NCBI GenBank assembly: GCA_021785115.1
Contig: JAJYGO010000327.1
Location: forward strand, 1 to 13,680
Length of the DNA stretch: 13,680 bases
Source: Chloroflexota bacterium
GTDB lineage: Bacteria > Chloroflexota > Limnocylindria > Limnocylindrales > CSP1-4
Direction: 5' to 3'
Notes under the pieces: model-generated
The model's database searches: none
Told to the model about the DNA's origin: nothing
The model's input: the letters and a program-made list of their open reading frames with translations, nothing else
Position numbers and translations under genes: made by a program
Shown here: positions 2,814 through 5,609 of the stretch, piece after piece
Numbering within the stretch: position 1 is the first letter of the stretch
Layout of the letters: each line of letters starts with the position of its first letter

Positions 2814-2880
2814 TCGGGGTCGTCCTGCTCGCGAGCACCCCGCAGGCACCGGCGCCGGGGCGGGCGACGCGAGGGCGGGG

Positions 2881-3400
2881 CTACTCGCACCGCTGCGCCG
2901 CGATCGGGTCCAGCCGAGCCGTCTGTCGCACCGGCCAGACGCCGAAGACGACGCCCACGCCCAGCGAGAACCCGACGGCCAGGGCGATCGTCGAGGGCGA
3001 CACCAGCATGATGTTCACGATCCGCGATCCCGCCCACGAGCAGGCTGATCGAGGCGATGCCCGCCAGCAGCAGCGACAGGATCCCGGTGATCGTCCCGAA
3101 CGCGGACAGCAGCTGCGCCCGGTCGATGATCGTGAAGTCGTCGGCGGTGCCATGGGCCAGGTCGTGGCGCTGGAGGAGGAGCTCGCGGATGGCGAACTTC
3201 GTGAGCGGGATGTTCTCGGGTGGACCACCGACACGGAGATCGCGCCCAGGGACTTGCCGGCGTCGAAGTAGTCGCGCACGGCGGCCAGCGGCACCAGCAC
3301 CTGGTCGTCGAGGATGCCCTTGGGCTGGAGGATGCCGACGATCCGGAACGGCACACCGCCCACGGTGATCGCCGAGCCCACGGCATCGGCCCCGAGGGGC
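2881..3400 (-). pseudogene. Decayed MacB/FtsX-type ABC transporter permease, C-terminal remnant
   Basis: Three minus-strand pieces in alternating frames match successive parts of a MacB-like permease. First comes the end of the periplasmic domain (DAVGSAITVGGVPFRIVGIL to GAISVSVVHP, about 3393-3222). A one-base loss near 3216-3222 shifts to ENIPLTKFAIRELLLQRH and the hydrophobic IASISLLVGGI (to about 3028). A one-base gain near 3022-3026 shifts back to VNIMLVS. That is followed at once by PSTIALAVGFSLGVGVVFG and the typical end TARLDPIAAQRCE, with TAG at 2883-2881. Between NIMLVS and PSTIALAVG the family normally has roughly 60 more residues (the TERTREIG region), which are missing. The N-terminal half is also absent, and no MacB-type ATPase or membrane-fusion partner lies nearby. 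Intact MacB-type permeases form a dimer that drives export or envelope transport. This copy cannot encode one. Confidence 0.85.
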
Positions 3401-3443
3401 GGCTGGCTGGGCCTTCCCCATCGACCTCCTCGCCGTTTCGGGG

Positions 3444-3449
3444 CAAGAT
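3444..3449 (+). promoter_or_regulatory. -10-like element of the alpha/beta hydrolase gene
   Basis: CAAGAT keeps the conserved A2 and T6 of a -10 element. It ends 7 bases before ATG 3457, the same geometry as the leaderless candidates elsewhere in the window. It is also the reason for preferring ATG 3457 over the in-frame ATG at 3448, which overlaps the element. Confidence 0.45.
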
Positions 3450-3456
3450 GGTGCGC

Positions 3457-4320
3457 ATGGACACGCGTCGCGTCCCGGTCGCCGAGGGCGTGGAGATCGC
3501 CGCCGACACCTGGCCAGCCCCAGATGCCGCCCCCGGCGCCCCGACGTTCGTGCTGATGCACGGGCTGGCGTCCAACGCGCGGCTCTGGGACGGCGTGGCG
3601 GCGCGTCTCGTTGAGCGGGGCTACCCCGCCGTCACGGTCGACCTCCGGGGCCACGGGCGCTCGTCCAAGCCCGACGGCCCCTACGACGTCCCGACCGTGG
3701 CCGACGACGTGGCCGCGTTGATCGGCGCCCTGGGGCTCGCGCGCCCCGTTGTCGCCGGGCAGTCGTGGGGCGGCAACGTGGCCATCGAGCTCGGCGCGCG
3801 CCATCCGGCGATCATGCGCGGCATCGTCTGCGTGGACGGCGGCTGGTTCGAGCCGTCGCGCGCCTTCCCGTCGTGGGAGGCATGCCGCGAGGCGCTGGCC
3901 CCGCCCCGGCTGGCCGGCCGCCGCCTCGCGGAGATCGAGGGCTACATCCGCGTCGCCCACCCCGACTGGCCCGAGGCGGGGATCGCCGGCACGCTCGCCA
4001 ACTTCGAGCGCTTCCCGGACGGGACCATCGCCCCCTGGCTCACCTTCGAGCGGCACCTGACGGTGCTCCGCGGCATGTGGGACCACCACCCCTCCCAGCA
4101 GTACCGGCTGGTGACGGCCCCCGTGCTGCTGCTGCCCGCTGGTGCCGACAGGCTCGACGACCAGGCGCAGGGCCGCCGGGAGGTGGTCGAGGAGGCGCTC
4201 GCCGGGCTGCCGCGGGCGCGGGTCCACCCGTTCGCGGGCGACCACGACCTCCACGCCCAGCACCCCGCGGCCGTGGCGGACGCGATGGCCGACGCGGTCG
4301 CCGACGGGTTCTTCGCGTGA
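3457..4320 (+). CDS. Alpha/beta-fold hydrolase
   Basis: A 287-residue soluble hydrolase of the alpha/beta fold. The oxyanion strand is FVLMHG (HG at 35-36), the nucleophile elbow is GQSWGG with Ser103, and the likely acid is Asp231 in PAGADRL. The catalytic His is probably His263 or His266 in GDHDLHAQHP. A cap region rich in Arg/Glu/Trp lies at about 125-200. These features show an esterase, lipase or similar activity but not the substrate. ATG 3457 is preferred because a -10-like CAAGAT lies 7 bases upstream. ATG 3448 would give three more residues, and no good ribosome site supports either. The stop TGA shares bases with the GTG start of the next gene (GTGA at 4317-4320), so the two are almost certainly co-transcribed and translationally coupled. 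The start sits beside the truncated end of the dead ABC permease, which is a likely rearrangement junction. Confidence 0.9.
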   Translation: MDTRRVPVAEGVEIAADTWPAPDAAPGAPTFVLMHGLASNARLWDGVAARLVERGYPAVTVDLRGHGRSSKPDGPYDVPTVADDVAALIGALGLARPVVAGQSWGGNVAIELGARHPAIMRGIVCVDGGWFEPSRAFPSWEACREALAPPRLAGRRLAEIEGYIRVAHPDWPEAGIAGTLANFERFPDGTIAPWLTFERHLTVLRGMWDHHPSQQYRLVTAPVLLLPAGADRLDDQAQGRREVVEEALAGLPRARVHPFAGDHDLHAQHPAAVADAMADAVADGFFA

Positions 4321-5609
4321 GCGGCGGGCCGGTGGGCGGCGACCCGCGCATCCTCGCGATCATGGGCTCGGGCGAGACGGCGCCTGCGATGGCCAAGGTC
4401 CACCGCGCGCTGTTCGACCGCTTCGGCCGGCAGGTGCCCGCGGTCATCCTCGACACGCCGTACGGGTTCCAGGAGAACGTCGACGACCTCTCGGCGCGGA
4501 CGATGGAGTTCTTCGCCATCAGCGTCGGCAACCCGGTCGAGGTCGCGTCGTACCGATCGACCGACGTGGACGCAGTGACCGCGGCGACCGCCCTCGCCCG
4601 CATCCGCGCGGCCCGCTACCTGATGGCCGGGCCCGGCAGCCCGTCGTACGCGCTTCGCCAGTGGACCGGCGGGCCGATCCCCGGAGCGCTCGAGGAGAAG
4701 CTCCGGAGCGGCGGGATCGTCACGATGGCCAGCGCCGCCGCCCTGACGCTGGGCGTCGTGTCGATCCCGGTCTACGAGGTCTACAAGGTGGGCGAGCCGC
4801 CGCACTGGCTCGAGGGCCTGGACCTGCTCGGCAGCGCGACCGGGCTGCGGGCCGCGGTCGTCCCCCACTACGACAACGCCGAGGGCGGCAACCACGACAC
4901 CCGCTTCTGCTACATGGGCGAGCGTCGCCTGCGGATGCTCGAGGCCCTGCTGCCGCAGGACGTGTTCGTGCTGGGCGTCGACAGCCACACGGCGCTGGTC
5001 CTGGACCTCGGGGCCGGGTCGGCGTCGGTCGCCGGGCTGGGCGGCGTGACGGTTCGCGTCGGCGGGCGGAGCGCCCGGTTCGAGGCCGGTGCCTCCATCC
5101 CGCTGTCGGCCCTCGGCGAGGCGGCTCGCGGGCTGGCAGCCGGGCAGTCCAGCGAGGCCGTCCACACGGCAGCCCTGGCGGGTTCAGCCTCCGACGAGCA
5201 GCCCGCCCGACCTGCGGTGCCGATGCGCCAGGAGATGCAGGAGCTGGAGGGGACCTTCAGCGCGGCGCTCGACGGTGGCGACGTGCGCGAGGCCGTGACC
5301 GCGCTGCTGGCGCTCGACGAGGCGATCAACGCCCGCGTCCGAGCCGGCGAGGACAGCCCCGACCTCGACAACGCCTCGGCGACCTTCCAGGCGCTCGTCG
5401 TGCGCCTGGGCGAGCAGGCCGGCCGCGGCTCCCACGACCGGCGAGCCGATCTGGCGCCGCTGGTCGAGGTCCTGCTGCAGCTGCGCGACACCGCCCGGGC
5501 GTCGAAGGACTGGACCACCGCGGACCTCATCCGCGCCCGCCTGGCCTCGGCGGGCGTCGAGGTCCGCGACGGGCCGTCGGGCTCGGAGTGGGTGCTGGCC
5601 GGCGCCTGA
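4317..5609 (+). CDS. Peptidase S51/cyanophycinase-like hydrolase fused to a CysRS C-terminal (DALR-like) domain
   Basis: A 430-residue fusion. Residues about 10-260 resemble the class I glutamine-amidotransferase-like fold of peptidase S51 and cyanophycinase. Visible features are ILAIMGSGET at the start, the loop AGPGSPSYALRQW (104-116), a nucleophile-elbow-like MASAAALTLG with Ser139, VVPHYDNAEGG (181-191), and GVDSHTALVLD (220-230). A linker (about 275-305) leads to a C-terminal part that aligns with the end of cysteinyl-tRNA synthetase. That part has helices from about 311 (EGTFSAALDGGDVREAV), then ARASKDWTTADLIRARL and GVEVRDGPSGSEW close to the end. In CysRS this region contacts the tRNA anticodon stem. 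Here the synthetase catalytic core (HIGH/KMSKS) is absent, and FNTPEA of the DALR region is replaced by GDVREA. The start GTG 4317 overlaps the hydrolase stop by four bases. Function is unknown. Tethering of a peptidase or amidase to tRNA is only a guess. Confidence 0.85.
   Translation: MSGGPVGGDPRILAIMGSGETAPAMAKVHRALFDRFGRQVPAVILDTPYGFQENVDDLSARTMEFFAISVGNPVEVASYRSTDVDAVTAATALARIRAARYLMAGPGSPSYALRQWTGGPIPGALEEKLRSGGIVTMASAAALTLGVVSIPVYEVYKVGEPPHWLEGLDLLGSATGLRAAVVPHYDNAEGGNHDTRFCYMGERRLRMLEALLPQDVFVLGVDSHTALVLDLGAGSASVAGLGGVTVRVGGRSARFEAGASIPLSALGEAARGLAAGQSSEAVHTAALAGSASDEQPARPAVPMRQEMQELEGTFSAALDGGDVREAVTALLALDEAINARVRAGEDSPDLDNASATFQALVVRLGEQAGRGSHDRRADLAPLVEVLLQLRDTARASKDWTTADLIRARLASAGVEVRDGPSGSEWVLAGA

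What the first reader, a model, noticed from the sequence alone, without database searches (positions are those of the whole stretch)
4317..5609. S51/cyanophycinase-like hydrolase fused to the tRNA-binding tail of cysteinyl-tRNA synthetase
One uninterrupted frame joins an amidotransferase-like S51 domain (about residues 10-260) to a segment matching the CysRS C-terminus, including ASKDWTTADLIRARL and GVEVRDGPSGSEW. The synthetase catalytic core is missing. In CysRS this module contacts tRNA-Cys. A protease/amidase-like domain carrying it suggests action on tRNA, an aminoacyl or peptidyl-tRNA, or a CysRS-related complex. That role is inference; I know of no characterised protein with this architecture.
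Basis: partly seen in the sequence, partly recalled or inferred. Interest (0 to 1): 0.75.

Follow-up and report, generated by a model that had tools for sequence, protein, structure and literature searches.

The report
Hydrolase carrying a cysteinyl-tRNA-synthetase tail
A little-studied bacterial enzyme family joins a peptidase-like domain to the part of cysteinyl-tRNA synthetase that reads the tRNA anticodon; it is real and widespread, and its gene neighbours in some bacteria hint at a role in making or handling cysteine-based protective thiols.

Summary
Observation confirmed. The 430-residue frame (4317-5609, +) is an S51 (PepE/cyanophycinase) fold, then a helical bundle and the CysRS anticodon-binding module (Pfam CysS_C, E 1e-8). 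It is no artefact: the architecture recurs in four phyla, and separate cysS genes were read in eight related genomes. Ser139 and His184 are invariant in 147 distinct relatives. In the 142 with a tail, positions matching the CysRS contacts to tRNA base G34 (R423, R427, D436) never vary, and the W432 position is always aromatic. 18 of the 147 keep the module without the bundle.

In other phyla the gene often sits near mycothiol-MshA-like, PIG-L-like, FemAB-like and Gfo/Idh genes; 21 of 24 fusion-bearing Desulfobacterota genomes have an MshA-like gene, against 4 of 80 without the fusion. BshC was found in 0 of 45 genomes; no MshC reaches its cut-off.

My reading: a tRNA-Cys-tethered amidase or acyltransferase tied to thiol-type metabolism (about 0.3). 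tRNA binding is untested. The window's nearest relatives lack the usual third catalytic residue, and three of their genomes lack MshA-like genes.

The parts
4317..5609 (+). Whole gene: S51-fold domain, helical bundle, CysS_C module (430 aa, GTG start)
   Evidence: one open frame; homologues of the same architecture in four phyla
4341..5102 (+). S51-fold domain, about residues 9-262
   Evidence: structure matches, family profile to 6nqc, PF03575 in 19 of 45 relatives
4731..4733 (+). Ser139, presumed nucleophile (ASAAA motif)
   Evidence: invariant in 147 of 147; aligned with the nucleophile region of 6nqc
4866..4868 (+). His184, presumed catalytic His
   Evidence: invariant in 147 of 147; aligned with the PHF motif of 6nqc
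4983..4985 (+). Residue 223: Ser here, Glu in 122 of 147 (position of the third triad residue by alignment)
5217..5429 (+). Three-helix bundle, residues 301-371, matching the CysRS linker domain by sequence
   Evidence: structure matches unspecific
5445..5591 (+). CysS_C anticodon-binding module, residues 377-425, with R390, R394, W399, D403 at the G34-contact positions
3448..4320 (+). Alpha/beta hydrolase gene, probable operon partner (start inferred; 3457 is also possible)
   Evidence: Pfam PF12697 9.5e-23; conserved next to the fusion; fused in P0086
4317..4320 (+). GTGA overlap of the stop codon of the hydrolase gene and the start codon of the fusion gene
   Evidence: sequence

Best explanation
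The protein is an S51-fold serine enzyme that carries the tRNA-reading end of CysRS. Shown: the composite fold, the invariant Ser and His, the invariant residues at the G34-contact positions, the recurrent alpha/beta hydrolase partner, and an association with MshA-like genes in other lineages. Inferred: the CysS_C module binds tRNA-Cys through its anticodon; a linker (type 2) or the bundle (type 1) lets the S51 site act on a cysteinyl group or a cysteine-derived conjugate; Ser139, activated by His184, forms an acyl-enzyme that is hydrolysed or passed to an amine. Where MshA-like and PIG-L/BshB-like genes sit beside it, the acceptor or product would be a glucosamine-based thiol. The alpha/beta hydrolase would act on an ester in the same pathway.
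For: Fold and domains. Ser139 and His184 invariant in 147 of 147. In 142 distinct tails only 5 of 49 positions never vary (R390, R394, D403, R406, D418) and three of them match G34 contacts of E. coli CysRS (passage of PMC12684709); chance of at least 3 of 4 contacts among 5 invariant positions is 0.002 if positions were random. The fourth contact position is W, F or Y in 142 of 142. Context: an MshA-like gene in 39 of 45 fusion genomes; in Desulfobacterota 21 of 24 fusion genomes against 4 of 80 without it; fusion, FemAB-like, MshA-like and PIG-L genes in one row in L196, L197, L199; ThuA-GFO, MshA-like, alpha/beta hydrolase and fusion within one stretch in L221, L223, L225. BshC in 0 of 45, MshC over its cut-off in 0 of 45. 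An S51 enzyme that cleaves aminoacyl-nucleotides exists: MccG (passages of PMC9239234).
Against: No binding or activity data. R423, R427, W432, D436 and D451 are also kept in 4 of 4 proteins that join CysS_C to a glycosyltransferase-like domain, and R423, R427 and D436 in 2 of 2 CysRS paralogues, so these residues may serve the fold. The window and its 24 nearest relatives lack the Glu, and three genomes of that group have no MshA-like gene, so the thiol link is not shown for the window itself. 14 of 45 fusion genomes have an MshC-like match of 344-422 bits, so the fusion does not simply replace MshC. In Chloroflexota ThuA-GFO is not enriched with the fusion (8 of 42 strong ThuA-GFO genomes match the fusion query, against 72 of 301 overall). 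Nucleoside-phosphorylase neighbours (8 of 156 non-duplicate loci) do not fit obviously. 57 of those 156 loci show none of the six markers within 6 kb (many have only 1.5 kb of flank). No tRNA-Cys gene lies near the gene in 53 loci scanned. Co-occurrence is not corrected for relatedness.
Confidence: 0.3

Rival explanations
1. Ordinary small-molecule amidase or peptidase (for example acting on a thiol or amino-sugar conjugate), in which the CysRS-derived module serves dimerisation, folding or free-nucleotide binding and does not touch tRNA.
For: Neighbours are metabolic: alpha/beta hydrolase, Gfo/Idh dehydrogenases, nucleoside phosphorylases, glycosyltransferase, deacetylase. The module occurs on other proteins. 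The bundle, and in 5 of 147 the tail, can be absent. The S51 fold is that of peptidases.
Against: Does not explain why residues at RNA-contact positions are among the few invariant ones, nor the retention of the module across four phyla.
Confidence: 0.37
2. Trans-editing or rescue deacylase: it grips tRNA-Cys and removes a wrong, oxidised or adducted aminoacyl group. Some S51 enzymes act on aspartyl substrates, so an oxidised cysteine, which resembles Asp, would be a natural target (my inference).
For: Residues at the G34-contact positions kept; Asp-X cleavage by PepE and Asp-nucleotide cleavage by MccG (passages of PMC9239234); a link between stress and tRNA-Cys integrity is described for B. 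subtilis (passages of PMC5372718).
Against: The paper listings seen show no such factor for tRNA-Cys (listings only); the neighbours seen are metabolic rather than translational.
Confidence: 0.15
3. In the window's own group the enzyme is weak or inactive (Glu replaced by Ser or Gly) and works as an RNA- or protein-binding partner of the alpha/beta hydrolase, whose gene overlaps its own.
For: Residue 223 is Ser or Gly in all 25 sequences of this group; GTGA overlap; single chain P0086.
Against: Ser139, His184 and the surrounding motifs stay invariant in the same group; replacing the third residue of MccG (D196A) substantially decreased resistance, whereas the Ser and His changes abolished protection from one compound (passage of PMC9239234).
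Confidence: 0.12
4. Assembly or frameshift artefact joining two genes.
For: None found.
Against: The same junction in independent genomes of four phyla.
Confidence: 0.005

Closest known systems
Peptidase family S51: 6nqc (acI-B1 actinobacterial peptidase), cyanophycinase CphB, PepE, MccG
   Different: ASAAA around the Ser where 6nqc has CSAGA; a long conserved stretch after the His (NAEGGxHDTRFCYMGE) absent from 6nqc; different conserved motifs elsewhere (DTPxGFQxN, GPGSPxY, PVYExYK); a C-terminal extension; Glu lost in the window's group. MccG was compared from the paper only
Cysteinyl-tRNA synthetase, C-terminal linker and anticodon-binding parts (1li5/1u0b, 3sp1, 8qhp)
   Same: Sequence over both parts (E 4e-12 for 1li5 with the C-terminal profile); fold of the last module; all four G34-contact positions
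   Different: No catalytic core; bundle only loosely alike in structure; joined to a hydrolase fold
MshC (mycothiol cysteine ligase, a CysRS relative) and BshC
   Same: A CysRS connection (MshC) and, in some phyla, similar neighbours (MshA-like and BshB-like genes)
   Different: MshC-like proteins keep the catalytic core, the fusion only the tail; BshC was not found in 45 fusion genomes
SepRS carrying a ThrRS-type editing domain (PMC8762117, passages seen)
   Same: A hydrolytic domain joined to a protein that recognises tRNA-Cys
   Different: Different domains, and those keep a synthetase

Membership tests
Peptidase family S51 | S51 fold | tested here: met
Peptidase family S51 | Match to the family profile PF03575 | tested here: inconclusive
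   19 of 45 relatives, best 1.9e-7; the window protein itself has no match up to E 10
Peptidase family S51 | Ser-His-Glu/Asp triad | tested here: inconclusive
   Ser and His 147 of 147; Glu 122 of 147, absent in the window and its 24 nearest relatives; assigned by alignment to 6nqc, no coordinates were available
Peptidase family S51 | Peptidase activity | not testable with these tools
   needs an assay
CysRS anticodon-binding module (CysS_C) | Profile match above the curated cut-off | tested here: met
   35.4 bits against 23
CysRS anticodon-binding module (CysS_C) | Residues at the G34-contact positions kept | tested here: met
   R390, R394, D403 in 142 of 142 tails, position 399 aromatic in 142 of 142; contacts from a passage of PMC12684709
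CysRS anticodon-binding module (CysS_C) | Binds tRNA-Cys | not testable with these tools
   needs a binding assay
Cysteinyl-tRNA synthetase | Catalytic core | tested here: not met
   only positions 342-464 of TIGR00435 are matched, 25.1 bits against a cut-off of 340
Mycothiol/bacillithiol-type pathway enzyme | Encoded with MshA/BshA-type and MshB/BshB-type genes | tested here: inconclusive
   MshA-like within 6 kb in 14 and PIG-L in 6 of 156 non-duplicate loci; the tested glycosyltransferases and deacetylases score below the curated cut-offs; no MshA-like gene in three genomes of the window's group
Mycothiol/bacillithiol-type pathway enzyme | Takes the place of MshC or BshC | tested here: inconclusive
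   18 of 22 MshA-positive Desulfobacterota fusion genomes show no second match to the MshC model at E <= 1e-30, and none of the 22 has a BshC match; but MshC-like matches occur in 14 of 45 fusion genomes

The most novel reading that the evidence does not exclude
A tRNA-dependent cysteine ligase for low-molecular-weight thiols. In Desulfobacterota that have MshA-like and FemAB-like genes, some with a PIG-L/BshB-like gene beside them, but no recognisable MshC or BshC, the S51-CysS_C protein (alone or with the FemAB-like protein) would take cysteine from Cys-tRNA-Cys as a Ser139 acyl-enzyme and place it on the glucosamine amine of a new glycosidic thiol; other lineages would keep the protein for hydrolysis or recycling of such thiols.
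Probability: 0.1. Interest if true: 0.92.

Novelty: new variant of a known kind. Interest (0 to 1): 0.62.

Why it matters
If the module binds tRNA-Cys, a widespread family of mostly unnamed hydrolases would act on or through tRNA, a role I know (from recall) for no S51 enzyme. The link to mycothiol-like genes outside Actinobacteria bears on an open question: a 2018 survey found complete mycothiol gene sets only in Actinobacteria (passages of PMC6282198), and a 2017 minireview speculated that tRNA-Cys may serve as a cysteine store for bacillithiol (passages of PMC5372718). This family offers a concrete protein with which to test such a link. Of the listed database copies that carry a name most read 'hypothetical protein' and some 'cyanophycinase-like exopeptidase', so even a simple activity assay would help to annotate thousands of genes.

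Tried and rejected
Artefact: rejected. A tRNA-Cys gene beside the fusion: none in 53 loci scanned, 53 of the 80 loci; tRNA-Glu lies just downstream in L026, L027, L064, L078. ThuA-GFO as an obligatory partner: rejected for Chloroflexota, although 7 of 7 genomes with a match in Actinomycetota (296 searched; in two, G010 and G660, only the dehydrogenase part matched) and 3 of 3 in Desulfobacterota (198 searched) carry the fusion. Fusion as a general replacement of MshC: rejected. Bundle as a specifically CysRS fold: structure matches unspecific. Identity of the alpha/beta hydrolase: many generic matches, all NCBIfam ones below the curated cut-offs. A first clustering of neighbouring ORFs was swamped by spurious high-GC frames and replaced by marker searches. 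Limits: the protein searches of whole genomes scored only some candidates per genome (for instance at most 5 and 23, where 14 of 80 genomes had more), so absences are softer than presences; Fisher values are not corrected for relatedness; phylum names are inferred from record titles of the centre loci. Distances between active site and anticodon pocket could not be measured, as no coordinates are given. Papers: no paper holds both 'cyanophycinase' and 'cysteinyl-tRNA synthetase', nor 'peptidase S51' with 'tRNA' and 'anticodon'; one search gave one paper, on other fusions; the listings show no tRNA-dependent thiol ligase. Only this open-access library was searched.

Full report

Not an artefact. 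169 stretches in genome contigs encode a relative and 80 were kept. The nearest, L001, is a Chloroflexi MAG at 93% identity with shared neighbours; two of the closer loci, L011 and L014, are titled Candidatus Limnocylindrales. In phylum draws the query matched 72 of 301 Chloroflexota (in many only the S51 part aligned), 24 of 198 Desulfobacterota, 23 of 296 Actinomycetota and 13 of 95 genomes of the phylum of L066, whose title says Rokubacteriota (phylum names inferred from record titles). A separate CysRS gene was read in eight genomes (L093, L096, L099, L103, L106, L108, L111, L112).

Architectures. 162 loci gave 154 closed proteins with an N-terminus, 147 of them distinct. Of these 124 have S51-bundle-CysS_C, 18 have S51-linker-CysS_C without the bundle, and 5 have no tail. 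The linker and no-tail forms in Chloroflexota were found because their S51 part matched the query and their C-termini were then read. On an S51 tree rooted on one unfused S51, 13 linker and all 5 no-tail forms fall together (support 0.66), and the bundle forms with 4 linker forms fall in a clade with support 0.89. The tail may be older than the bundle; the root is poorly resolved.

Catalytic residues. Ser139 and His184 are invariant in 147 of 147. Alignment to 6nqc puts them at its SAG serine and PHF histidine and puts residue 223 at its GIDE glutamate. Residue 223 is Glu in 122 and Ser or Gly in 25; the 25 are the window and 24 loci at 53-93% identity (L001-L021, L023-L025). The PepE triad Ser120-His157-Glu192 and the substantial but partial effect of changing the third residue in MccG come from passages of PMC9239234.

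The tRNA-reading residues. A passage of PMC12684709 lists contacts of E. coli CysRS with G34: hydrogen bonds of R427 and D436, stacking of W432, and a hydration network with D436 and R423. These align with R394, D403, W399 and R390. In 142 distinct tails only 5 of 49 positions never vary: R390, R394, D403, R406, D418. Position 399 is W in 71, F in 51 and Y in 20. The same four positions are kept in nine CysRS rows (position 432 W or F) and in four proteins that join CysS_C to a domain that looks by eye like a glycosyltransferase; two CysRS paralogues keep R423, R427 and D436. The test therefore does not separate RNA binding from fold.

Partner hydrolase. An alpha/beta hydrolase lies within 100 bp upstream on the same strand in 76 of 162 loci and within 6 kb in 76 of 156 non-duplicate loci (many loci hold only 1.5 kb of flank). 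P0086 is one chain of 674 residues with an alpha/beta hydrolase part, the S51 domain and the tail. The hydrolase's own serine and histidine regions are conserved. Its substrate is unknown.

Wider context. A ThuA-GFO double-domain dehydrogenase lies nearby in L064, L072, L078 (Acidimicrobiia-type loci), L129 and L206 (Chloroflexota), L073, L079, L194, L195 (Desulfobacterota) and L221, L223, L225 (Rokubacterial group), in the first nine with a second Gfo/Idh gene. In several Desulfobacterota the fusion is next to an Acetyltransf_6/FemAB-like gene, an MshA-like glycosyltransferase (best NCBIfam model mycothiol_MshA, 215-361 bits in three proteins tested, cut-off 462.5) and a PIG-L deacetylase (best model BshB1, 98 and 114 bits, cut-off 182.5). 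Within 6 kb, of 156 non-duplicate loci: alpha/beta hydrolase 76, ThuA-GFO 19, MshA-like 14, FemAB-like 13, phosphorylase 8, PIG-L 6, none of these 57. An MshA-like gene was found in 39 of 45 fusion genomes. In the Desulfobacterota draw 21 of 24 fusion genomes and 4 of 80 others have one (80 of the 174 without the fusion were searched; in 14 of the 80 not all candidates were scored); Fisher 4e-15 without correction for relatedness. BshC was found in none of the 45, while 3 of 14 control genomes rang. MshC reaches its cut-off in none of the 45 (in 1 of the 14 controls); 14 genomes have a match of 344-422 bits, above the other CysRS-like matches of the same search (at most 327), which I read as MshC-like. 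Of 22 MshA-positive Desulfobacterota fusion genomes 18 show no second match.

Against. Three genomes of the window's group (G001, G003, G005) have no MshA-like match at E <= 1e-45, and this is the group with the altered third residue; the thiol link comes from other lineages. ThuA-GFO is not enriched with the fusion in Chloroflexota (8 of 42 strong matches against 72 of 301).

Mechanism. I think it most interesting and nearly as likely as any rival that the module still binds tRNA-Cys and that the S51 site handles a cysteinyl group or cysteine conjugate, as amidase or acyltransferase, in a thiol-type pathway (0.3). A plain small-molecule amidase whose tail does not bind RNA is slightly more likely (0.37). 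Shown: fold, residues, gene context. Inferred: tRNA binding, substrate, chemistry, product.

Literature. Passages were seen of PMC12684709, PMC9239234, PMC8762117, PMC5372718 and PMC6282198; other papers only as search listings. Searches found no paper on this architecture; only an open-access library was searched.

Noticed in passing
L095, L098, L101, L104: Another CysS_C carrier: a short CysS_C hairpin followed by a domain that looks by eye like a glycosyltransferase, in genomes that also have the fusion and a full CysRS.
   Followed up: partly
L109 (1-2172), L234 (1608-3920): Cysteine synthase joined to a CysRS paralogue in Desulfobacterota genomes that have the fusion and ThuA-GFO genes; possibly a thiol enzyme.
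   Followed up: partly
L195 3416-6464, L196 3932-6984, L231 3630-5860, L232 4043-6339: MshA-like and FemAB-like genes (with a PIG-L/BshB-like gene in L195 and L196) in Desulfobacterota; a 2018 survey, passages seen, reports complete mycothiol gene sets only in Actinobacteria (PMC6282198). Product unknown.
   Followed up: partly
L042, L057 (9285-9995), L073, L115, L147: A second, unfused S51 gene lies directly beside the fusion or its relative (PF03575 2e-16 for L057).
   Followed up: no
L071, L076, L137, L138, L142, L143, L148 and L121-L123: A PNP_UDP_1 phosphorylase gene follows the fusion gene in one group of Desulfobacterota; in L121-L123 a gene that looks by eye like a pyrimidine-nucleoside phosphorylase follows the linker form.
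   Followed up: no
window 2850-3421, minus strand: By eye only, a piece resembling the end of an FtsX/MacB-type permease next to the MFS gene; Pfam scored only the MFS part.
   Followed up: no
L026, L027, L064, L078: A tRNA-Glu gene lies about 20-80 bp downstream of the fusion gene.
   Followed up: no
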